Below, in pieces: positions 6,773-37,504 of a stretch of DNA of 39,447 nt. The stretch is from positions 1-39,447 of the forward strand of contig ONAV01000006.1 of assembly GCA_900315925.1 (NCBI GenBank). The letters run 5' to 3'. A program made the translations under genes and the position numbers. Within the stretch, counting starts at the first letter, position 1. Each line of letters starts with the position of its first letter. Under the pieces are notes generated by a model. It searched no databases and was not told where the DNA came from. It saw only the letters and a program-made list of their open reading frames with translations. Source of the DNA: an uncultured Selenomonadales bacterium. GTDB lineage: Bacteria; Bacillota; Negativicutes; Acidaminococcales; Acidaminococcaceae.

Positions 6773-8212
6773 TTACAGCAGCGCGAGCAATGCCTTTTTG
6801 TCTGTCTTCCCGCGGCTGTTCAGCGGAATTATCTTTACCAGGATAATTTTTTTCGGCATTTCCTGCTGCATCAGGGTATCCCGCAGGCGCAACCGCAGGT
6901 CCTGTTTCGTCCGGTTTTCATTTTCACAGACCACAAAAGCAGCAGCCTCCTGTCCCCGCCCCGCGTCATCATACGGCAGCACGACAGCCTGGATCACTTC
7001 CGGTAACGCACATAATGCGTTTTCAATTTTTGTGCAGCTGATCTTAAAGCCGCCTTTGTTGAGAATATCCCCTTCGCGCCCGTTAAAGATCAGATACCCT
7101 TCCCGATTAAAATATCCTGTGTCGTGAAGGGTGCAGGGCTGCTGCAGCCCTTCCACGTGATACGGCGTATCAATATAGATCAGGCCGTTTTCCACCCACA
7201 CCTTTACACCGGGCACCGGTTTGCCCACGCTGTCCGGGAAACGAAGCACCTCGTCATAGCCCAGCCAGGTAATATAATCCAGCTCGCTGGCCCCGTAGTA
7301 CAACAGAATATCGCTGTTCGGAAAGGAGCGTTTCAGCCGTTCCGCCGTCTTCGCCCCCAGCAGCTGTGAACCCGCCAGCACCATCTGCATGGAAGGGTAT
7401 TCCTGTTTCAGGTACTTTGTCAGCACCTTCAGTTTCGCCGGAACCAGATATAACACGCTTACCCGCAGGTCACGGATCATCTCCAGCCACTGACGGCAAT
7501 TGAACACATCGCTGACTGCCAGCGTACAGCCTTCATAAATAACGGAAGCCCATATGCTGAGATTGCCGGTAAAGCTGAAACTCCCTTCCAGAAAGACCAC
7601 CGCGGCCCCGTCTATGCAGAAGCGGCGGTTCTGCTCCGGAATAAAACCGGCCCAGCTTTCATAGGTGCGGTACATCACTTTCGGAACATCCGTGGAACCG
7701 CTGCTCAGCACGCCCATGCAGGCATTCTGGTACGGAACCGGTGCCGGGACAAAACCGGAAACTGTTTCTGCCGCTTTTTGCATTTTTTCAGGACGAGGCG
7801 CTGTCTCACCCGTATCCGTCTCACCTGCTTTGGTGCCGGCAGCCCCCTCCTTCGGGGAATAACCCTGCCGAAGTGTCCACCCGTTTTCTTTTTCTTCCAA
7901 CACAAAACCGATTCGGTTCTGTGTTACCAGTTTTCCTTCTGCCGCTTCCGGCAGATCATAATGTCCGATGACAGGCACCTGTCCTGCATCCATTACCGCC
8001 AGAAATGCCAGCAACTGATGATACAGGTTTTGTGTCCGGATCAGCACGCCGGTTTTATAACCAGCCGGAAACTGCTTCTTCCAGTCCGGCGTAATAAATC
8101 CGCGGACATCTTCATACGCCTGGCCATAGGTAATCTTCCTGTCCCGCAGTACGAGGTAAGGCCTGTTCTCTTTTTCTATTGCATGCTTTTGTAACAGCGT
8201 AACGTAATCCAT
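6773..8212 (-). CDS. AMP-forming acyl-CoA ligase (YhfT-like, BioY-linked)
   Basis: The 479-residue protein is an ANL-superfamily adenylate-forming enzyme. It carries the phosphate loop LSSGSTDVPKV (the usual Gly after SGST is Asp), the YYGASELDY adenine motif, the DTGYFNREGYL segment, the hinge GREGDILNKGGFKIS, and the C-terminal catalytic lysine in SRGKTDKKAL. It would activate a carboxylic acid with ATP and pass it to CoA; the acid is unknown. An unusual low-complexity stretch rich in Lys/Glu/Thr/Ala occurs near residues 115-155. ATG 8212 was chosen because GGAGA lies four bases upstream; the TTG at 8227 is unlikely. It follows the thiolase gene with a 256-nt gap occupied by a palindromic repeat. 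The trio with bioY matches B. subtilis yhfU-yhfS-yhfT. Confidence 0.85.
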   Translation of the reverse strand: MDYVTLLQKHAIEKENRPYLVLRDRKITYGQAYEDVRGFITPDWKKQFPAGYKTGVLIRTQNLYHQLLAFLAVMDAGQVPVIGHYDLPEAAEGKLVTQNRIGFVLEEKENGWTLRQGYSPKEGAAGTKAGETDTGETAPRPEKMQKAAETVSGFVPAPVPYQNACMGVLSSGSTDVPKVMYRTYESWAGFIPEQNRRFCIDGAAVVFLEGSFSFTGNLSIWASVIYEGCTLAVSDVFNCRQWLEMIRDLRVSVLYLVPAKLKVLTKYLKQEYPSMQMVLAGSQLLGAKTAERLKRSFPNSDILLYYGASELDYITWLGYDEVLRFPDSVGKPVPGVKVWVENGLIYIDTPYHVEGLQQPCTLHDTGYFNREGYLIFNGREGDILNKGGFKISCTKIENALCALPEVIQAVVLPYDDAGRGQEAAAFVVCENENRTKQDLRLRLRDTLMQQEMPKKIILVKIIPLNSRGKTDKKALLALL

Positions 8213-8255
8213 AGGTTCTCCACACAACGTAATTGAAATTTGTTATGCAGTATAC

Positions 8256-8429
8256 GACAGGAAAAAGACTTCGCAAAACCGTCCACGATTGCGATTTCAT
8301 GGACTCATTCGCCTGTGGCTTCGAAACTCGGAGCTGCGCTCCTCAGACAGTCTCAGCCACGGCCGGCTCTTTTCGTCTCATGAAATTTGGCAATCATTCC
8401 CGATGTTTTGCTTCAGTCTTTCCCCTGCC
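8256..8429. repeat. Long palindromic repeat, copy A
   Basis: This 174-bp element is an imperfect inverted repeat through its whole length. Outer arms begin GACAGGAAAAAG and end CTTTCCCCTGCC, the next arms are TTTCATG/CATGAAA, then GCCTGTGGCT/AGCCACGGC, and the centre is GGAGC-TGC-GCTCC. A second copy lies at 26624-26781. It sits between two co-directional genes (thiolase and ligase), so it may be transcribed. No open frame in it looks real. Confidence 0.85.
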
Positions 8430-8468
8430 AGCATAGTGTTTAAGCAACAAACTATAAAAATTATTCAG

Positions 8469-9713
8469 TTAACACTTTTTCACCAGCAATGCCGTGCCCA
8501 ATCCTCCGGCGCCGGCAATACTCAACAGGCCAAGCTTCCCTTCCGTCTGTTTCAGTTCCTGCCACAGATGCAGCAGCAAAATCGCGCCCGACGCGCCATA
8601 GGGATGACCGTACGCCAGTGCGCCGCCCCAGGGACAGTACCGCGCAGTCAGTTCCGGATATTTCCTGGCAAACAGCGCGCTGATCACCGCAAAGGCTTCA
8701 TTATATTCAAACACGTCAATCTGTTCCGGCTGTAAATCGCAGCGTTGCAGCAAATGCGCGCCGGTTTCTATCGCACCTTCCGGACTGTAGCGCGGGTCCA
8801 CGCCCCACTCAAAACCGGCCAGCAGTTCTGCCTCCGGCCGCAGGCCGTATTGTTCCACCGCCTGCCGGGAAGCCAGAACCACAAACGCCGCCCCGTCATT
8901 CATCAGGCAGGCATTGGCAGCCGTCAGCAGGGGAGTCACGGCGACTTTATGCTCCTGTAATACGTTTTGTCTGTCAACGTTTTCTTTTATTGGCAGCGAA
9001 GCCCTGTCTCCTGCCAGCAAATCCTTCACTTCTTCTTCCGTGAACAGTTTCGGCATCCTGGCGGCCAGTTTCGGACTCATGCGGTCACGGATTCCTTCAT
9101 CGCCTTCACTTCCAAACACGGAAACCACAATTTCATTCAGCCGGTTTTCCTCTCTGGCTTTTTTTGCCAGCCGGTGACTGCGCACTGCAAATGCATCCAG
9201 TTCCTCCCGTGAAAAGCCGTGCTTCTGACAGGTTCGCTCCGCTCCTTCCAGCATTGCTTTTGCGCTGGTCGTATCCGGGGAAAACTGGGCTACGGTAAAG
9301 CCTTCTTCCCGATAACGGGCATCTGCTTTTGCATAAACACGGACAGGCTGCATAGACGTGGACTCAAATCCGCCGGCAATCAGAATGTCCGCCATGCCGC
9401 TGCCGATTTTTGTCATGGCCAGTTCAATGGAAGCCGCCGCAGAAGCGCACTGCATATCGATCGTCAGCGCCGGAATCGTGGCAGGCAAACCGGCCTTCAA
9501 CGCAGCCAGCCGCGTAATATTTCCTCCCGTTCCCACCGCGTTGCCGCAGAGCAGACCGTCCGCCTGCAACACGAAGGGATACTTTGCCATGATTTTTTGT
9601 AAAACCGCCGCAGCCAGCTCCTCGGCAGGCACCGTCTTAAACAGGCCTCCCGTCAGCCCAATGTGACTGCGCAGTCCCCCGATCAGATAAACCTTCTCCA
9701 TACCCGTCACCAT
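8469..9713 (-). CDS. Thiolase-family protein (YhfS-like) lacking the C-terminal catalytic cysteine
   Basis: The 414-residue protein spans a whole thiolase. The nucleophilic Cys is present in DMQCASAAAS (about residue 90), EYNEAFA and GHPYGASGA (with the active His) are present, and the C-terminus ends SIAGAGGLGTALL. In standard thiolases (for example FadA, TMCIGLGQG) the second catalytic Cys lies in this last loop; ungapped comparison puts Ala here. The nucleotides read clearly GCC. It may therefore not catalyse ordinary Claisen condensation or thiolysis. Its start is the ATG in MVTGMEKV or the second Met (four codons on). It has a BioY gene upstream, separated by a terminator, and the acyl-CoA ligase downstream. 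Confidence 0.85.
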   Translation of the reverse strand: MVTGMEKVYLIGGLRSHIGLTGGLFKTVPAEELAAAVLQKIMAKYPFVLQADGLLCGNAVGTGGNITRLAALKAGLPATIPALTIDMQCASAAASIELAMTKIGSGMADILIAGGFESTSMQPVRVYAKADARYREEGFTVAQFSPDTTSAKAMLEGAERTCQKHGFSREELDAFAVRSHRLAKKAREENRLNEIVVSVFGSEGDEGIRDRMSPKLAARMPKLFTEEEVKDLLAGDRASLPIKENVDRQNVLQEHKVAVTPLLTAANACLMNDGAAFVVLASRQAVEQYGLRPEAELLAGFEWGVDPRYSPEGAIETGAHLLQRCDLQPEQIDVFEYNEAFAVISALFARKYPELTARYCPWGGALAYGHPYGASGAILLLHLWQELKQTEGKLGLLSIAGAGGLGTALLVKKC

Positions 9714-25524: not shown

Positions 25525-26595
25525 TTACCGTATCGTACCGCCGCCGACCACCACGTCATCCTGGTAGAACACCACAGCCTGACCCGGTGTCAGCGCCCGC
25601 TGTGGTTCATCAAACGTTACTTTGATGTTTCCGTCGTCCAACGGTTCAATCACAGCCGGCACATCTTTGGCCCGATAACGGGGCTTGGCCGTGACACGCA
25701 CCGGTCCTTTCAGTTTCGGAACGGAAATCAGATTGCAGCGCTCCGCAATCAATGTGTCAGAGAACAGCGCCTCCTGCGGTCCCAGGTACACAATGTTCTT
25801 TTCCACATCTTTCCGGACCACATAGAGCGGATACTGATAGGCAATCCCCAGTCCTTTCCGCTGCCCGATGGTGTAATGCAGCTGCCCTTTGTGGGTGCCC
25901 AGCACCGTACCGTCCAGATGGATAAACCTTCCCGGTTGCGGCTTACGCCTTGTCATATTCTCAATCACCCGGGCGTAATCCCCGTCCGGCACAAAGCAGA
26001 TATCCTGGCTGTCCGGCTTTCGGGCATTGGCCAGCCCTTCCGTTTCCGCTTTTTCCCGGATGGCCGTCTTCTGCAGATGCCCCAGCGGAAACAGGATACG
26101 GGCCAGCTGTGATTGCGTCAGGGTGTACAGCATATAGCTCTGGTCCTTTTGCCTGTCATCTCCCCGCAGCAGCAGCCAGCGTCCGGTTTCTTCATTAAAT
26201 TTTACATTAGCGTAGTGGCCCGTGGCAATGTAGTCGCATCCCAGCTCTTCCGCTTTCGGAAACAGCTGCCCCAGCTTCACATTCTTGTTGCAGTCCACAC
26301 AGGGATTGGGCGTCCGCCCGCTTTCATACTCCGCAATGAAGTGGTCTATGACAAACTGACGGAAGTACGGACAGAAGTCAAACACGTAATGGGGAAACCC
26401 CATCTTTTCCGCAACCTGCTTCGCGTCCCGCACGTTAGCAAAACTGCTGTCTGTTTCCCCTGTCAGCCCGATGTCTTTGTTTTCAAACATCTTCAGGGTG
26501 ACGCCGACCACATCATAACCCGCTTCCTGCAGCAGCAGTGCCGCCGTACTGCTGTCCACGCCGCCGCTCATGGCCATTAAAACTTTTTGCTTCAT
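25525..26595 (-). CDS. mnmA: tRNA-specific 2-thiouridylase MnmA
   Basis: The 356-residue enzyme puts the 2-thio group on U34 of tRNA-Lys, -Glu and -Gln. It has the N-terminal PP-loop AMSGGVDSSTAA, the catalytic Cys in TPNPCVDCNKN (about residue 100) and the second Cys in SQDICFVPDGDY (about 200). The RNA-binding and beta-barrel end includes LTPGQAVVFY. Length is normal. AAAGG lies seven bases before the ATG. Upstream are a palindromic repeat, an HD gene and an Rrf2 regulator; a cysteine desulfurase, the usual partner, is not in this window. Confidence 0.96.
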   Translation of the reverse strand: MKQKVLMAMSGGVDSSTAALLLQEAGYDVVGVTLKMFENKDIGLTGETDSSFANVRDAKQVAEKMGFPHYVFDFCPYFRQFVIDHFIAEYESGRTPNPCVDCNKNVKLGQLFPKAEELGCDYIATGHYANVKFNEETGRWLLLRGDDRQKDQSYMLYTLTQSQLARILFPLGHLQKTAIREKAETEGLANARKPDSQDICFVPDGDYARVIENMTRRKPQPGRFIHLDGTVLGTHKGQLHYTIGQRKGLGIAYQYPLYVVRKDVEKNIVYLGPQEALFSDTLIAERCNLISVPKLKGPVRVTAKPRYRAKDVPAVIEPLDDGNIKVTFDEPQRALTPGQAVVFYQDDVVVGGGTIR

Positions 26596-26623
26596 TTTAA
26601 AACCTTTTTATGCTCTTCTGCGT

Positions 26624-26781
26624 GACAGGATTCCGCAAAACTGTTCACGTTTGCTATTCCATGGATTTATGCGCCTGTGGCTTCGAAACTCGGGCTGCGC
26701 CCTCAAACAGTCTCGCCACTGCGGCGCATTTCATCTCATGGAATCACGCAACCGCTCTCAATGTTTTGCTTGAATCCTGCC
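26624..26781. repeat. Long palindromic repeat, copy B
   Basis: This 158-bp element is homologous to 8256-8429 and in the same orientation. Arms are GACAGGATTC/GAATCCTGCC, TTCCATG/CATGGAA, GCGCCTGTGGC/GCCACTGCGGCGC, with GGGC-TGC-GCCC at the centre. Where it differs from copy A, both arms usually change together. It lies between the HD gene and mnmA, which read in the same direction. Confidence 0.85.
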
Positions 26782-26803
26782 ACGCATATAAATCTATAAA
26801 ACT

Positions 26804-27385
26804 TTATGCTCCAAATGCAGCGCACTCTGCGTTAATCTTTGCTTCATCTACGCGCATGGCCTCAATGGTTTTTGTAATCAAGTCTTCCAGCGTCCAGCCC
26901 AGCATGTCCGCGCCCTGCTGGATAACCTCCCGGTGACAGCCTGCCGCAAATCTGTGATCTTTGAATTTTTTCTTCACGGATTTCATTTCCATGTCCTGCA
27001 CGCTTTTAGACGGACGCACCAAAGCACAGGCGCCGATGAGTCCCGTCAGTTCGTCACAGGCAAACAGAACTTTTTCCATTTCGTGTTCCGGTTTGATGTC
27101 TACCGTAATCCCGTAACCATGGCTGGCCGTTGCATGGATCAGCCGTTCATCCAGCCCCCGTTCCCGCATGATCTCCTGGGATTTTTTGCAGTGCTGGTCC
27201 GGATACTGTTCAAAATCCAAATCGTGGAGCAAACCCACCAGGCCCCAGAAATCTTCTTCTTCCGCATATCCCAACGTGCGGGCAAAATGGCGCATGGCCC
27301 CTTCCACCGTCAGGGCATGGCGCAGGTGGAACGGGTCTTTATTAAATTCAGTTAATAGTTTCCAGGCTTCTTCTCTTGTAAGCAT
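26804..27385 (-). CDS. HD-superfamily hydrolase (COG2316 type)
   Basis: The 193-residue protein starts MLTREEAWKLLTEFNKDPFHLRHALTVE, typical of the COG2316 predicted hydrolases. The first His is in HLRHALTVEGAMR, the HD pair in GLLHDLDFEQYPDQH (about residue 57), and a later Asp in FACDELTGLI. It is soluble and its substrate is unknown. AAGGA lies six bases before ATG 27385; the ATG at 27403 is too early for it. It reads toward mnmA, separated by the long palindromic repeat. Confidence 0.87.
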   Translation of the reverse strand: MLTREEAWKLLTEFNKDPFHLRHALTVEGAMRHFARTLGYAEEEDFWGLVGLLHDLDFEQYPDQHCKKSQEIMRERGLDERLIHATASHGYGITVDIKPEHEMEKVLFACDELTGLIGACALVRPSKSVQDMEMKSVKKKFKDHRFAAGCHREVIQQGADMLGWTLEDLITKTIEAMRVDEAKINAECAAFGA

Positions 27386-27473
27386 AAGGCATCCTTCTTT
27401 CATTATTAATCAAAATATTTCAATAACGCTTTCCTGAAATTTCGCAAACCATTGATAACTGCAAACGATTTCC

Positions 27474-31698: not shown

Positions 31699-33039
31699 GA
31701 TAAGGTACAATAAGTTGCGCAAAATTAAATAGACATGGTGTAAATCCTTTTGTAGAATTAAGTTACCACACCAAATCAACAAGGAGGATTTACCCATGTC
31801 CAACAATATTATACAGTTGAATCAAGAATTAATCCACAATGAATTAAAGGATTTGGTAAAAAACAGTGTCGAAGAAACACTGAATGCTTTACTGGATCAC
31901 GAAGCGGAGAATCTCGTTAATGCACAGAAATACGAGCGTTCCGCAAACCGTCAGGGCTACCGGGCCGGTCATTACAACCGTAAGCTGCAGACCACTGCCG
32001 GTAATGTAGACTTAAAAGTTCCTAAGCTAAAAGGGCTTTCCTTCGAGACAGCGATTATCGAACGCTATCGCCGCAGGGAAACCTCTGTGGAAGAAGCACT
32101 CATCGAAATGTATCTGGCCGGAGTATCCGTCCGTCGTGTGGAGGATATCACCGAAGCCCTGTGGGGCACAAAGGTATCGCCGGGCACAATCAGCAACTTA
32201 AATAAAAAGGCTTATACACACATCGAAGCCTGGCGTACACGTCCCCTCACCGGGGCCTATCCCTATGTCTATGTAGATGGCATTTACTTAAAACGCAGTT
32301 GGGGTGGCGAGATCCAGAACGTATCTGTACTGGTTGCCATCGGTGTAAACGAAGAAGGATCACGAGAAATTCTTGGTGCAGCAGAAGGCCTCAAGGAAGA
32401 CAGGCAAAGCTGGAAGAACTTCTTTATCTGGCTCAAAAGCCGTGGCCTGCAGGGCGTTCGTCTTATTATCGGAGATAAGAACCTGGGTATGTTGGAATCT
32501 ATACCCGAAGTCTTCCCGGATGCCGCATATCAGCGTTGTACTGTACACTTCTACCGAAATATCTTCTCGGTAACACCCCGGAAGAAGATGCGTGTCGTGA
32601 GCTTAATGCTTAAAGCAATCCATGCCCAGGAAAGCAAAGCGGCAGCACGGGAGAAAGCCAGACAGGTAGCCGATAAACTTCGTGAGATGAAATTGTCTGC
32701 GGCTGCCAGAAAAGTTGAAGAAGGCATAGAGGAAACTCTGACCTATATGAACTTTCCTACAGAGCATTGGCGTAAGATCCGTACCAACAATGCTATGGAG
32801 CGGGTCAACCGGGAGATTAAACGACGGACGAAGGCCATAGGCGCATTTCCCGATGGAGCAAGCGCCTTGATGCTAGTCTATGCCAGACTTCGTTATGTGG
32901 CAAACAGCCGCTGGGGGTGCAAGAATTATATGAATATGGATCATCTGAACGAAATCGCAGATGAATCATATGAGTATATAGATTGAATTCAACCACTACA
33001 AGGGGATTTTAAAATTTGCGCAAAACTATTGACACTATC
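31699..33039 (+). mobile_element. IS256-family insertion sequence
   Basis: About 1.34 kb, with one transposase gene and imperfect terminal inverted repeats. The left end is GATAAGGTACAATAAGTTGC and the right end, read from the minus strand, is GATAGTGTCAATAGTTTTGC; both continue GCAAA. The ends share most of 25 bases with one compensated gap. Size and ends fit IS256. The 8-9 bases on each side differ, so no target duplication is visible. Confidence 0.85.
31796..32986 (+). CDS. IS256 family (Mutator type) transposase
   Basis: The 396-residue protein is full length for the family. It has the N-terminal RQGYRAGHYNR segment, the first catalytic Asp in YVYVDGIYLK (about residue 160), the second in LIIGDKNLG (about 225, usually ISDxHKGL), the CTVHFYRNI motif, and the catalytic Glu in RTNNAMERVNREIKRR (about 340). 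All three acidic residues are present, so it could be active. AAGGAGG lies about seven bases upstream of the ATG. Confidence 0.95.
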   Translation: MSNNIIQLNQELIHNELKDLVKNSVEETLNALLDHEAENLVNAQKYERSANRQGYRAGHYNRKLQTTAGNVDLKVPKLKGLSFETAIIERYRRRETSVEEALIEMYLAGVSVRRVEDITEALWGTKVSPGTISNLNKKAYTHIEAWRTRPLTGAYPYVYVDGIYLKRSWGGEIQNVSVLVAIGVNEEGSREILGAAEGLKEDRQSWKNFFIWLKSRGLQGVRLIIGDKNLGMLESIPEVFPDAAYQRCTVHFYRNIFSVTPRKKMRVVSLMLKAIHAQESKAAAREKARQVADKLREMKLSAAARKVEEGIEETLTYMNFPTEHWRKIRTNNAMERVNREIKRRTKAIGAFPDGASALMLVYARLRYVANSRWGCKNYMNMDHLNEIADESYEYID

Positions 33040-33880: not shown

Positions 33881-34216
33881 TTATTTTTTGCTTGCTCTTT
33901 TCTTAAGCCAAGAGAAAGTTTTGTCTACAATAAATTTTTGTACGATTCCTTTACCAAAACACATTTGTAGCAACGCCTGCATAGCACCGTCCTCCTTTTT
34001 AACACCATCTTCTAACCACTGTAAGCTTCGTTCCGGATATTTTGCATACATAACTTTAAATTCATTTGCAGCTTGTGTGATTTTCCCCTCTTTTAAAAGA
34101 GAAATAATAGCACTTGGATCAAAAGTATCAGCCAATACCAACTTTTCTCCGCACATATCACAGAACTTATCATCAACCCTAACTTCGTTGCCACAAGCTT
34201 GGCAGTTTCTACCCAT
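33881..34216 (-). CDS. Small zinc-ribbon protein
   Basis: The roughly 111-residue protein begins MGRNCQACGNEVRVDDKFCDMCGEKL, a CxxC...CxxC zinc ribbon (residues 4-25), followed by a helical region (about 35-75) with TPR-like spacing (ITQAANEFKVMYAKYPERSLQWLEDG) and a basic C-terminus KKRASKK. No membrane segment is seen. GAGGAGG lies just before two ATGs (34219, 34216); the second has better spacing. The ribbon resembles those in the protein at 36530-37504. Function unknown. Confidence 0.8.
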   Translation of the reverse strand: MGRNCQACGNEVRVDDKFCDMCGEKLVLADTFDPSAIISLLKEGKITQAANEFKVMYAKYPERSLQWLEDGVKKEDGAMQALLQMCFGKGIVQKFIVDKTFSWLKKRASKK

Positions 34217-34305
34217 CATGCGCCTCCTCAAAAAGTCGTTTTTCATTAATACGACATTTTGGTCAATTTACCTTAAGTGTTTTTCTTAATCTCAATCCTT
34301 TTAAA

Positions 34306-35178
34306 TTATTGGAATGGATAAATACAAATCCTTGCATTTCGGTCTACCATCCTCAAAATTTTTATCATATTCTCTTCGGCAACAGCCACACACCCCATCG
34401 TATAGGGATAGTTACCAAAGCAATGGAGGAAAATAGCAGAGCCTTTTCCATACACATTTTCTTTGTTGTAATCAAAAAACAGTGCATAATTATACTGCGG
34501 AATATAACTGAGCAGGTGCTCACTGTTGCCGGAGCAGGTGTGCTTTATTTTGCTCACGTCAACAAACTGGTTATAATACTCTCTGTCACCGCAAAGGTAC
34601 ATGGTATTGGTCAATTTAGTGTAAGGAACCAACGAACCCGGATCATCTTTTGCACCGAAAGCCATCAACATGCCAAAATCACCGGTAGGTGTGCGAACAT
34701 CCCCCTCACGTTGTTTGTCTATTCCGTTTTTACCTAAATACGCTTTACATTGCAATACTTCTTTCCATATTCCACTTTCACTTTTTATAAGCAAAAATAG
34801 CTTGGCCACACTGAATTCCGATGCAGATTGTTCTACCAAAATAATTTGCTTAACTTCAGATTTATTTTGATACTGCATTAAATATTTTTTGCCGTTGCGG
34901 TAGTCATACTCCTGCATTTTAACTTGCAAGGTATCTCTCGTTTCTTCCGTTTTTTTATTATCATCTTTTTTCAAACTGTCAACATCAGTTTTACTATTTA
35001 CAGCACTCATGCTAACTTTACCTTGTTCTAACGCCCTATCGGTTTTTACAGGAGCATTACTGATTGTTGGCTTCATTTGTACATTTTTGGCATTTATATT
35101 TCCACAACCAAATTCAGCCATAATAACAACTGTAATCAATATGATTTTAAAAAAACAATAAATTTTTCCACTCATCAT
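34306..35178 (-). CDS. YkuD-type L,D-transpeptidase, probable lipoprotein
   Basis: The 290-residue protein has an N-terminal signal (CFFKIILITVVIMAEFGC), and the Cys could be a weak lipobox. A Lys/Asp-rich linker (about 30-85) leads to the YkuD catalytic domain, with TPTGDF (about 167-172) and the active-site motif SAIFLHCFGNYPYTMGCVAV (about residues 248-267), giving the conserved His and nucleophilic Cys. It would form 3-3 crosslinks or attach proteins to peptidoglycan in the periplasm. The ribosome site is weak (GAG before MM). A terminator separates it from the gene upstream. Confidence 0.85.
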   Translation of the reverse strand: MMSGKIYCFFKIILITVVIMAEFGCGNINAKNVQMKPTISNAPVKTDRALEQGKVSMSAVNSKTDVDSLKKDDNKKTEETRDTLQVKMQEYDYRNGKKYLMQYQNKSEVKQIILVEQSASEFSVAKLFLLIKSESGIWKEVLQCKAYLGKNGIDKQREGDVRTPTGDFGMLMAFGAKDDPGSLVPYTKLTNTMYLCGDREYYNQFVDVSKIKHTCSGNSEHLLSYIPQYNYALFFDYNKENVYGKGSAIFLHCFGNYPYTMGCVAVAEENMIKILRMVDRNARICIYPFQ

Positions 35179-35232
35179 TTTTAACTCAAAAGATCACTTT
35201 CAAAAACTTCACCATGCAACGCTAAAAACAAT

Positions 35233-35258
35233 AGGGGTAATAACTCTGTATTACCCCT
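35233..35258 (-). terminator. Terminator after the glycan-binding protein gene
   Basis: AGGGGTAATA (35233-35242) pairs with TATTACCCCT (35249-35258) with a 6-nt loop; the minus strand then runs ATTGTTTTTAG. It divides the gene set into a two-gene 5' part and a three-gene 3' part. Confidence 0.75.
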
Positions 35259-35266
35259 GCCATCAG

Positions 35267-36514
35267 TTAAAAGAAATTAACTTCTGCAATACAGGTATCT
35301 TCATATTTGTTTCCTGGGGCAACCCGTTCTACCACAAGCTTCACCTTATTTACAGTAATTGGTTGTTTAAAATTAACCCTCTGTCCGCCAAAAGTGTCCC
35401 TCAAATTATACACTTCAGAAGAACCGTCGGAACCAATCACACGCAAAGCGATAGGCCGTGCATTTTGATAGAAAAGATTCTGAGATTTCTGGTGCCCAAT
35501 CCAAATGTTCATACCATTGACTTTATAATTACCATTAAAATGAATTTCAATATTTTCGCCAATGCCTAAACCTTTCACGCCTTCTGACCAGCAGGTACTT
35601 GTATTACCATCAACAGTCAGCTTGGCAGAGTGAACATAATTCCCTTCCTGATCTGCCGAAGAATGGTAAGCGCCAACAACGCTAATCGGTTCGGCTACAT
35701 TTCCTGTATTAGTATTTTGTTGCGTTTTCATTGCATTTTGTACAGGTGCACCTGGTTTTACCGGCACTACACTATTATTATTATTATTTTTTGTATTTAC
35801 CATCTGTCCTTGCGCCATCCCCGGCTGTTGTTGTCTTATATTGCTTCGAGGTGGCTCAAAGATTGAACTAACAAATCTAAATAAAATCATCAGCACAACC
35901 ATGGCGCCAAAAACATTGATGAACATGTCGCCTACGCCTGCTTTTTCTCTGGAAAGGCGTACCAGAGATTTATCTTTAATACTGTTTTGATTTGCTGCTT
36001 CATATGCATTCTTGGAAGTTTCATACGCATTCTTTGATGCATTCATCATCTTCATGCCAACAGACTTTGCCGAAGATAGTAAGGTTCCTGAAGCAGTTTC
36101 CTGTTCCGATAAAAGGGCAGTATCTTTTTTATTGCCAACCGAATCAGTGCCGGATGCGATTACTTTTTTATCATCCTCTTTCAACGGTTCCGCCACTTTT
36201 CCCTTCTGTTCCGCACTATCATGTTGCGTAATTTGCTGCTTATTCGAAGTTAATGGTGTTGCCTGTTTAACTTCCATTGTTGCCAACAACTGCTTAGCAT
36301 TTTCCAAACCTGCATCCGCAGCCTGCATAAGATACTTTTTACCTGCTTCTATATCCTTAGGCACACCAGCAGCACCTTTAATATGCAAGGATCCTAAATA
36401 AAACTTCGCTTCCGGATCATTTTCTTGTTCTGCTAAATTCTTCAACAGTGCTACAGCTTCACCAAACTTCTTTTCTGCAAATAATTTTTTTACTTCATTA
36501 ATTCCTGTGTTCAT
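35267..36514 (-). CDS. Sel1-repeat, membrane-spanning protein with NADase-type glycan-binding domain
   Basis: The 415-residue protein has, in order, one or two Sel1/TPR-like units (about residues 5-80; AEKKFGEAVALLKNLAEQ, AKFYLGSLHIKGAAGVPKDIEAGKKYL), a charged linker, one membrane span (about 190-215; FINVFGAMVVLMILFRFV), an Asn/Gln-rich spacer (NTKNNNNNSVV), and a C-terminal discoidin-like glycan-binding domain (about 275-415) with LTVDGNTSTCWSEG, FYQNARPIALRV and CIAEVNFF. The ribbon or TPR side should be cytoplasmic and the glycan-binding side outside. AGGGGG lies seven bases before the ATG. It is 15 nt downstream of the triple zinc-ribbon gene, so they form one operon. Confidence 0.82.
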   Translation of the reverse strand: MNTGINEVKKLFAEKKFGEAVALLKNLAEQENDPEAKFYLGSLHIKGAAGVPKDIEAGKKYLMQAADAGLENAKQLLATMEVKQATPLTSNKQQITQHDSAEQKGKVAEPLKEDDKKVIASGTDSVGNKKDTALLSEQETASGTLLSSAKSVGMKMMNASKNAYETSKNAYEAANQNSIKDKSLVRLSREKAGVGDMFINVFGAMVVLMILFRFVSSIFEPPRSNIRQQQPGMAQGQMVNTKNNNNNSVVPVKPGAPVQNAMKTQQNTNTGNVAEPISVVGAYHSSADQEGNYVHSAKLTVDGNTSTCWSEGVKGLGIGENIEIHFNGNYKVNGMNIWIGHQKSQNLFYQNARPIALRVIGSDGSSEVYNLRDTFGGQRVNFKQPITVNKVKLVVERVAPGNKYEDTCIAEVNFF

Positions 36515-36529
36515 TTTCCATCCCCCTGT

Positions 36530-37504
36530 TCAAATATCATTAGTATATTTGCTATTGACTTCAGCCGTTGATGCAGTTGTTTCGTCAAAAGATCCACCTA
36601 ATAACTCATTGACCGTATTATCCAAAAAATTATTTTGCGCAAAAGAATCATTTTCAGAAACAGTTAACGCGGATTCAGATTCATTTTGTGTCGCAATCGA
36701 TACTTCTTCGATTTCTTCAGTATTGTTTGCAATGAGAGGCTGTGTTAAATTCTCGTTTTTTTCACTCACACCACCCATCAAATCACTTACAACATTATCA
36801 AGAAAGTCATTCTGTGCAACATCTTCAATTGCCTTATTAAATTTTCGCCCACATTCTCTACAAAATCTGGCTATACTACGATTGTCAGTACCACAAAACG
36901 GACAAATTAATGTGAGTATGTTTTCATTAACAGTATTTTCAGCAACATTTGCTGTTACTGCCTGTATTCCAGTTTCTATCGTTTTTTCACTCGGCAAATC
37001 AGCAGTCTTAACCGTAATATCAGGAACTGCCTGAGTAGAAGTTTCTTCTACTTCGTTATTTGATCCACCCAGCAAATCTCCTACTACATTTTCAAGAAAA
37101 CTGTTTTGTGTCAGGCTTTCATCTGAATTGGCTAACTCCTGTCCACATTCTCCACAAAATCCGGCTTCACTTTCGTTAGCAGCACCACAAAACGGACAAG
37201 TTAATGTTAGTACATCTTCATTAGCCGATTCATTATTAGCAACATTACCGCCCTCAGATACATTTGCGTTTTGTAAAGTAGTATCCGATTCTTCACCAAG
37301 AGTGTTCTTCATCACTTCAGAAGAACTTTCCATCACCTCGGCTTCTGTTTTTAATTCTGTTAGTTTCTCGCCACATTCACTACAAAATACGGAGTCCAAA
37401 GTATTTTGGGTTCCACAAATTGGACAGACATTACTGTGTTCATCAACCAAATTTGAATCTCCGCTTAATAACGAATTCAAAGTATCCTCAAGTAAGCTAT
37501 TCAC
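36530..37504 (-). CDS. Protein with three zinc ribbons and four FLDN-LLGG helical repeats
   Basis: No known full-length family. The 324-residue protein has three CxxC...CxxC ribbons: CPICGTQNTLDSVFCSECG (about 22-40), CPFCGAANESEAGFCGECG (about 101-119) and CPFCGTDNRSIARFCRECG (about 200-218). Between and around them a short helical unit recurs four times: LLEDTLNSLLSG, FLENVVGDLLGG, FLDNVVSDLMGG and FLDNTVNELLGG, each followed by a Glu/Ser/Thr-rich acidic linker. It has no signal peptide or membrane span, so it is cytoplasmic. The start is GTG, six bases after AAGGAG. It looks like a modular scaffold. It heads the operon with the glycan-binding protein. Confidence 0.8.
   Translation of the reverse strand: MNSLLEDTLNSLLSGDSNLVDEHSNVCPICGTQNTLDSVFCSECGEKLTELKTEAEVMESSSEVMKNTLGEESDTTLQNANVSEGGNVANNESANEDVLTLTCPFCGAANESEAGFCGECGQELANSDESLTQNSFLENVVGDLLGGSNNEVEETSTQAVPDITVKTADLPSEKTIETGIQAVTANVAENTVNENILTLICPFCGTDNRSIARFCRECGRKFNKAIEDVAQNDFLDNVVSDLMGGVSEKNENLTQPLIANNTEEIEEVSIATQNESESALTVSENDSFAQNNFLDNTVNELLGGSFDETTASTAEVNSKYTNDI

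What the first reader, a model, noticed from the sequence alone, without database searches (positions are those of the whole stretch)
8256..8429. Long palindromic repeat family with compensatory changes between copies
Two intergenic elements (8256-8429 and 26624-26781) are homologous and palindromic throughout. Between copies the paired arms change together: TTTCATG/CATGAAA becomes TTCCATG/CATGGAA, the centre GGAGC-TGC-GCTCC becomes GGGC-TGC-GCCC, and the outer arms AAAAAG/CTTTCC become ATTC/GAAT. Such covariation implies selection on a folded RNA or DNA hairpin, for example a mobile palindromic element (REP/MITE-like) or a processed transcript hairpin. Both copies lie between co-directional minus-strand genes. 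The family was not recognised.
Basis: seen in the sequence. Interest (0 to 1): 0.7.

Follow-up and report, generated by a model that had tools for sequence, protein, structure and literature searches.

The report
Palindromic repeats that flip in place
Rumen bacteria of the genus Succiniclasticum carry dozens of copies of a roughly 170-base palindromic DNA element, often just after genes; its two arms change together between copies, and at matching places in related species the whole element is often found turned around.

Summary
Both window copies belong to a large interspersed family: 55 strong matches in the window's own genome, present in 11 of 14 Succiniclasticum genomes, one weak match among 286 other genomes of the class. 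Covariation exceeds shuffled and slid controls on four of five measures. Selection on a transcribed RNA strand is not supported: G-U and A-C intermediates are both rare and do not follow gene direction.

New points. (1) Copies are enriched between convergent genes (47 of 128 against 13.5% of random intergenic points), and there 28 of 47 have arms laid out like bidirectional terminators; the two window copies do not. (2) At 38 orthologous sites, 34 of 84 copy pairs are in opposite orientation, once with flanks 98-99% identical; of 34 clearly orthologous pairs, 14 are flipped. (3) Several sites show loss of the palindrome centre. Arm homogenisation plus in-place inversion is what replication template switching at inverted repeats is reported to do, so I take that as the main cause of the covariation, with selection keeping a 3'-end hairpin. 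How copies first spread, and why 37 pairs look replaced by another copy, is unknown. Closest known kind: Yersinia YPAL (RU-2) repeats.

The parts
8251..8435 (+). copy 1 of the family with its outer arms, as far as pairing runs in the minus-strand fold (core 8272-8411)
8272..8411 (+). conserved core of copy 1, 140 nt, asymmetric hairpin with GGAGC-TGC-GCTCC tip
   Evidence: alignment A1, model R1
26619..26786 (+). copy 2 of the family with its outer arms, as far as pairing runs in the plus-strand fold (core 26634-26769)
26634..26769 (+). conserved core of copy 2, 136 nt, GGGC-TGC-GCCC tip
   Evidence: alignment A1, model R1
26607..26615 (+). left member of a 9-nt direct repeat (TTTATGCTC) flanking copy 2; the empty site in G004 has it once (G006: CTTATGCTT)
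26803..26811 (+). right member of that direct repeat; overlaps the stop codon of the gene at 26804-27403
8469..9713 (-). thiolase gene that ends about 35 nt before copy 1 (reading the minus strand)
6773..8227 (-). AMP-binding enzyme gene that begins about 25 nt after copy 1
26804..27403 (-). gene that ends about 20 nt before copy 2
   Evidence: no Pfam match
25525..26595 (-). MnmA-type tRNA thiouridylase gene that begins about 25 nt after copy 2

Best explanation
This is a genus-wide family of imperfect palindromic intergenic repeats (about 165-185 bp; core about 138 bp plus outer arms) in Succiniclasticum. Shown: copies favour gene 3' ends, with a strong excess between convergent genes, and there 28 of 47 have an A-tract, paired stem and T-tract, the build of a bidirectional intrinsic terminator. 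Shown: at orthologous sites the whole element is often inverted in place, arms change together, and several sites have lost the centre. Inferred: the palindrome is a hot spot for replication template switching. One arm copied from the other keeps the arms complementary; switching to the other strand and back turns the segment between the arms around; slippage removes the centre. Inferred: selection for a 3'-end hairpin or terminator that works in either orientation, and for something in the conserved core loops, keeps the copies. Unknown: how copies first spread.
For: 55 copies over 100 bits in the own genome; 11 of 14 genus genomes positive. Covariation; between orthologous copies 91 double-changed pairs against 16.4 expected for independent sides, 73 of the 91 Watson-Crick (46 copy pairs with element identity 0.80 or more, of 84). 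No strand preference: one-sided intermediates 33 G-U, 44 A-C; by gene direction p = 0.41. In-place inversion: 34 of 84 orthologous pairs, 18 of 38 loci; among the 34 pairs whose ortholog is closer than any copy at another locus, 14 flipped and 20 same; letters (L062/L140, flanks 98-99% identical). Flips are also seen against S. ruminis DSM 9236 (L264/L015, L106/L212, L118/L092, L266/L031). Centre lost: L175; sites 1, 17. Context: 47 of 128 convergent against 81 of 600 random intergenic points of G004, p = 6e-9. A-left and T-right tracts outside the inner 16 nt: 28 of 47 convergent copies against 16 of 81 others, p = 7e-6 (34 of 47 against 23 of 81 with a wider zone that touches the stem). Template switching homogenises arms and inverts spacers (PMC8604942; PMC8794818; passages read).
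Against: The conserved asymmetric inner loops should be erased if one whole arm were copied from the other, so selection or copying of outer arms only must be added. Double changes are not clustered in neighbouring pairs (5 adjacent against 2.8 by shuffling), so multi-base switches are not shown. 37 of 84 orthologous pairs (23 same, 14 inverted) have a copy at another locus that is closer by 5 points or more, which points to replacement and is not explained by switching at one site. The minus strand folds better in 146 of 162 copies, hinting at a one-strand constraint. Short ordinary hairpins showed 0 flips against 20 conserved loops, so the inversion is not general. The two window copies have no A-tract on the left or T-tract on the right of the arms, and the tracts in co-directional copies do not clearly follow gene direction (T-right 17 of 30 in ++ and 14 of 36 in --; A-left 12 of 30 and 12 of 36).
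Confidence: 0.5

Rival explanations
1. Selection on RNA structure: the element is transcribed with the upstream gene and its hairpin is processed or stabilises mRNA; double changes are ordinary compensatory mutations.
For: Strong covariation; conserved inner loops; minus strand folds better in 146 of 162 copies; position close behind stop codons.
Against: G-U not favoured over A-C, nor by gene direction; orientation relative to co-directional genes random, 30 ++ against 36 -- (p = 0.54); orientation flips at orthologous sites.
Confidence: 0.2
2. A YPAL- or MITE-like mobile element moved by a transposase not recognised here, which repeatedly inserts at the same preferred sites; opposite orientations and different bodies at one site are independent insertions.
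For: Filled and empty sites; 37 of 84 orthologous pairs look replaced; possible flanking direct repeats of 5-9 nt, some imperfect, at sites 6, 32, 36 and 44, of varying length as reported for YPAL.
Against: 14 flipped pairs are closer to their ortholog than to any held copy elsewhere; no near-identical copies within the own genome (maximum 94%); sites 13 and 33 show no repeat and sites 0 and 49 only 4 nt; Y1 transposase not found in G000, G001, G002 and G013, which carry 64, 51, 10 and 21 copies, though G000 and G002 are incomplete. Other transposases were not surveyed.
Confidence: 0.2
3. A dedicated invertase or cruciform-resolving enzyme recognises the conserved core loops and flips the element.
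For: Inversion in this family but in none of the comparisons of short hairpins (0 against 20 conserved loops; p = 0.0008); conserved asymmetric core.
Against: Arm length and size alone could explain the difference from short hairpins. One promoter-like match at the edge of copy 1, none in copy 2. No recombinase was searched for.
Confidence: 0.07
4. The flips are assembly artefacts of short-read metagenome bins at a repeated palindrome.
For: Most of the named records are metagenome bins; the element is repeated and palindromic.
Against: The arm shared at the flip boundary can be short (about 14 nt with one mismatch in L062/L140), shorter than usual assembly words (recalled); flips against S. 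ruminis DSM 9236; assemblies agree with each other (L048, L116, L130 in one orientation, L047 in the other; L264, L079, L110 against L015).
Confidence: 0.03

Closest known systems
YPAL / RU-2 (Yersinia palindromic sequence, about 168 bp)
   Same: Size, abundant intergenic palindrome, no TA termini, filled and empty sites, target duplications of varying length, targets in or next to dyad symmetry (as described in PMC2229807 section 11; the last two points are only suggestive here).
   Different: Other phylum; sequence relation not tested; in-place inversion and terminator-like arms are not mentioned in the section that I read; no near-identical copies here.
ERIC / IRU / RU-1 (127 bp, enterobacteria)
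   Same: Intergenic repeat, reported to act on neighbouring mRNA (PMC2229807 section 5, part 1 of 2).
   Different: There the effect depends on orientation; here orientation is random. Length differs.
Inverted repeats evolving by replication template switching (yeast coding genes, rRNA stems)
   Same: Arm homogenisation, compensatory changes and inversion of the segment between arms (passages of PMC8604942 and PMC8794818).
   Different: There the inverted spacers are a few bases; here about 140 bases, in a dispersed repeat family, with both orientations at 18 of 38 compared loci.
Small inversions at stem-loops of chloroplast genomes
   Same: Stem-loop segments turn around in place (recalled; only a search listing was seen).
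   Different: Not a dispersed family; not bacterial.
REP / REPIN with RAYT transposase
   Same: Extragenic palindromes in many copies.
   Different: REP units are 20-40 bp (abstract listed); no link with Y1_Tnp genes here.

Membership tests
YPAL / RU-2 | about 168 bp palindromic intergenic repeat | tested here: met
YPAL / RU-2 | target duplications of variable length (3-26 bp) | tested here: inconclusive
   direct repeats of 5-9 nt, some imperfect, at 4 of 8 clean empty sites; 4 nt at two, none at two
YPAL / RU-2 | target in or next to dyad symmetry | tested here: inconclusive
   8 sites, mean score 5.2 against 4.3 in random windows of short intergenic gaps, p = 0.07
YPAL / RU-2 | sequence homology to Yersinia YPAL | not tested
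   no Yersinia sequence was fetched
MITE of a DDE transposon | terminal inverted repeats conserved between copies | tested here: not met
   outermost arms differ between copies
MITE of a DDE transposon | target duplication of constant length | tested here: not met
   8 clean empty sites
REP / REPIN | a RAYT (Y1_Tnp) in genomes with many copies | tested here: not met
   none in G000, G001, G002, G013
Rfam RNA family | match to a described family | tested here: not met
   only two tRNAs at gathering score in the window; none at E up to 5 around copy 1; copy 2 was not searched at the lax threshold
Bidirectional intrinsic terminator | A-tract, stem, T-tract between convergent genes | tested here: met
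   both tracts in 28 of 47 convergent copies, 16 of 81 in other contexts, 13 of 31 unclassed; neither window copy has them
Bidirectional intrinsic terminator | termination in vivo | not testable with these tools
   no expression data
Template-switch inverted repeat | arms change together and the segment between arms is inverted | tested here: met
Template-switch inverted repeat | clusters of simultaneous changes within an arm | tested here: not met
   5 adjacent double changes against 2.8 by shuffling
Phase-variable inverton | promoter within the invertible segment and a recombinase | tested here: inconclusive
   one promoter-like match at the edge of copy 1, none in copy 2; recombinases not surveyed

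The most novel reading that the evidence does not exclude
A dispersed, orientation-indifferent terminator hairpin that is continually turned around and swapped at fixed genomic sites by an element-specific process (cruciform resolution, ectopic conversion or an unknown enzyme acting on the conserved core loops), so that each site keeps a hairpin while its sequence and orientation turn over faster than the flanking genes.
Probability: 0.2. Interest if true: 0.8.

Novelty: new variant of a known kind. Interest (0 to 1): 0.55.

Why it matters
Covariation is commonly read as proof of selection on RNA structure. Here a family with very strong covariation also shows frequent in-place inversion and no dependence on the transcribed strand, so a large part of the signal may come from the way palindromes are copied. 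With 38 comparable loci it is a natural data set to measure how fast bacterial palindromes flip, homogenise and collapse, and to test whether terminators are born from repeats. Ten searches of the held open-access papers listed no title or abstract that describes this family; most subscription papers are not held.

Tried and rejected
Rfam families: none for the element. Phages, plasmids and viral contigs: no match. RAYT link: rejected. SbcCD loss as the condition for long palindromes: SbcD over the cut-off in 5 of 14 genomes, namely three carriers (G001, G005, G011) and two non-carriers (G008, G009), so it does not sort them. Idea that the core inserts into loops of existing terminators, the arms being the old stems: of the 60 commonest 8-letter stem words of 442 short hairpins outside elements in 1.9 Mb of G004, 9 occur in element arms at all, at most 6 times and mostly A-rich; G004 mini-hairpins with element-like arms look like collapsed elements. 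Target dyad symmetry: not significant. RNA strand preference: not significant. Clustering of double changes: not significant.

Limits and dropped rows. One search left out one of the 34 pairs (columns 30-107), which is a fixed G-U on the plus strand in 150 of 164 copies; with it the plus strand has far more G-U cells. Of the 125 A-C cells, 49 are from one column pair. Gene contexts rest on a simple ORF caller; 36 of 164 copies had too little flank to be classed, and the 31 unclassed of the 159 used are left out of the Fisher tests. The null for contexts is from G004 alone, the copies from many genomes (54 of 164 from the own genome). My first tail measure could catch A-runs inside the stem, so repeats it further out; both are given. 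The measure was uninformative. Genome-wide counts are lower bounds: one search scored 150 of 722 candidates, 80 per genome, 10 per genome. An earlier ortholog count of 45 pairs, which included replaced copies, gave 236 double changes kept as Watson-Crick against 48-73 slid, 87 G-U and 107 A-C. In one search, 33 full-length G000 copies had a matching G004 region: 6 held a full element, 27 did not. One search printed 26 of the 33; one of these (site 40) is among the 6; 8 were taken as clean empty sites, others are remnants or ambiguous. One search was a script error, repeated.

Full report
Observation. A search of the own genome with copy 1 listed 40 matches, its scoring limit. A covariance model (R1) built from 40 copies listed 68 matches at E up to 0.001, 55 of them above 100 bits. 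In a quicker search of 41 genomes, 11 of 14 in the genus had 10-64 matches and 0 of 27 others had any. In 300 genomes of the class, with only ten candidates scored per genome, the same 11 of 14 were positive, and 1 of the 286 outside the genus gave a single weak match of 31 bits. One Selenomonadales bin (L087) has only a partial, weak match (24.9 bits). Six contig lengths identify G004 as S. ruminis DSM 9236.

Anatomy. The core (about 138 nt) has CGCAAAAC/GTTTTGC arms, a GATTGC/GCAATC stem, an ATTCCATGGA/TCTCATGGAAT stem, GTGGC/GCCAC and a tip such as GGGGC-TTCG-CCCC. Between the stems lie asymmetric loops that hardly vary. Outside the core, outer arms differ between copies but stay complementary in each. 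In the 40-copy alignment 20 of 34 pairs have double changes; 96.4% of cells pair, against 88.6% in shuffles and 39-46% with slid partners; the number of further pair types (32) is no higher than in shuffles (31.6). A longer variant of about 205 nt keeps the 5' part and has another palindromic module in the middle; two copies carry the same 118-nt insert at the same core position; one copy is a mosaic of two.

Is the covariation RNA selection? Over 164 distinct copies and 33 pairs (one fixed G-U pair left out, see Tried and rejected), 5092 cells are Watson-Crick, 57 G-U, 125 A-C (G-U on the other strand), 81 other and 57 have gaps. The A-C excess leans on one column pair (49 cells). If the transcribed strand were under selection, G-U should be favoured on + where genes read + and on - where they read -. 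The ratio does not differ (10:23 against 8:33, p = 0.41). Between orthologous copies with element identity of 0.80 or more (46 of 84 pairs), 91 pairs changed on both sides, 16.4 being expected for independent sides; one-sided changes were 33 to G-U, 44 to A-C and 92 to other mismatches. So co-change is real and happens within sites, but shows no transcribed strand. Against this, the minus strand folds better in 146 of 162 copies, through fixed wobble positions: a family-wide feature that I cannot explain.

Place. With a simple ORF caller, 47 of 128 classifiable copies lie between convergent genes, against 81 of 600 random intergenic points of G004 (13.5%; p = 6e-9); 160 of 256 neighbouring gene ends are 3' ends, at a median of 48 nt from the core. 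Orientation relative to co-directional genes is random (30 and 36, p = 0.54). Sixteen to forty nt outside the core, an A-rich stretch on the left occurs in 82 of 159 copies and a T-rich stretch on the right in 83 of 159, against 17 and 36 further out. Both together occur in 28 of 47 convergent copies, 8 of 30 ++, 6 of 36 --, 2 of 15 divergent and 13 of 31 unclassed (p = 7e-6 for convergent against the 81 other classed copies; a wider zone gave 34 of 47 against 23 of 81). This is the layout of a bidirectional terminator. In co-directional copies the tracts do not clearly follow the gene direction, and the two window copies lack them.

Turnover. At the second window copy, one species (G010) has the same element with wholly different but complementary outer arms, another (G012) has the window's arms with the centre lost, and two (G004, G006) have a short gap without the element. 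Matching copies by both flanks gave 84 orthologous pairs at 38 loci: 50 in the same orientation, 34 inverted, 18 loci with both. Because orthologous sites can also hold a different family member, I asked whether the partner is closer than any held copy at another locus. That is so for 34 pairs (20 same, at 14 loci; 14 inverted, at 8 loci). In 37 pairs (23 same, 14 inverted) a copy elsewhere is closer by 5 points or more; 13 are unclear. The clearest case is L062 against L140: flanks 98-99% identical over about 590 nt each, the element inverted between outer arms of about 14 nt. Flips are seen against S. ruminis too. As a control, 103 comparisons of short hairpins of G004 gave 20 with the same loop, 83 changed and 0 inverted, 17 more being uninformative; the difference in size and arm length limits this control. 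Some sites without a full element show collapsed remnants (for example sites 1 and 17).

Spread. The closest copies within the own genome are 94% identical, the mean 79% (54 copies), so there has been no recent burst. Flanking direct repeats of 5-9 nt, some imperfect, occur at 4 of 8 clean empty/filled pairs. The Y1 transposase of REP systems was not found in four carriers. Spread is therefore old, or its agent unknown.

Reading. In the passages that I read, template switching between inverted repeats is described as homogenising the arms and inverting the segment between them (PMC8604942), and as able to create and keep hairpins, with loop inversions rare in rRNA (PMC8794818). Both marks are here at once, at long palindromes. 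The replaced bodies, the conserved inner loops and the lack of clustered changes are left over.

Relation to known families. The nearest description that I read is YPAL/RU-2 of Yersinia (PMC2229807: outline, section 5 part 1 and section 11): same size, palindromic, varying target duplications, targets near dyad symmetry. Homology was not tested. I file it as looking and perhaps working like YPAL, not as a member.

Noticed in passing
L221 213-416, L222, L223, L224 (own genome): A longer variant of about 205 nt: same 5' arm, then another palindromic module (CAGGGCAATCCG ... CGGATTGCCCTG); a similar module stands alone upstream of the element in L012.
   Followed up: partly
L225 1067-1323 and L016 175-430: The same 118-nt insert at the same core position in two copies with different arms, so a composite element seems to have been copied or recombined.
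   Followed up: partly
L219 972-1151: Mosaic copy: left half as in the orthologous element of L141 and L112, then a jump into another family member.
   Followed up: partly
own and related genomes: SbcD over the curated cut-off in only 5 of 14 genus genomes; G004 and G012, 98-99% complete, show only a weak 21-24 bit match.
   Followed up: no
G004 contig ends: Besides two near full-length matches, 29 partial Y1_Tnp (IS200-type) matches lie mostly at contig ends, as expected of a multicopy insertion sequence that breaks the assembly.
   Followed up: no
G004, 1.9 Mb fetched: Short hairpins with stem words such as ACAGCCGT and GAGCCAAA/GAGCCGAA recur 10-13 times: other small repeat families.
   Followed up: no
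window 31796-32986: Mutator-type (IS256-like) transposase gene.
   Followed up: no
window 33881-37504: Neighbouring genes for proteins with repeated zinc-ribbon-like motifs seen in the translations.
   Followed up: no
family-wide; window 8251-8435 and 26619-26786: The minus strand folds better in 146 of 162 copies through fixed wobble positions.
   Followed up: partly
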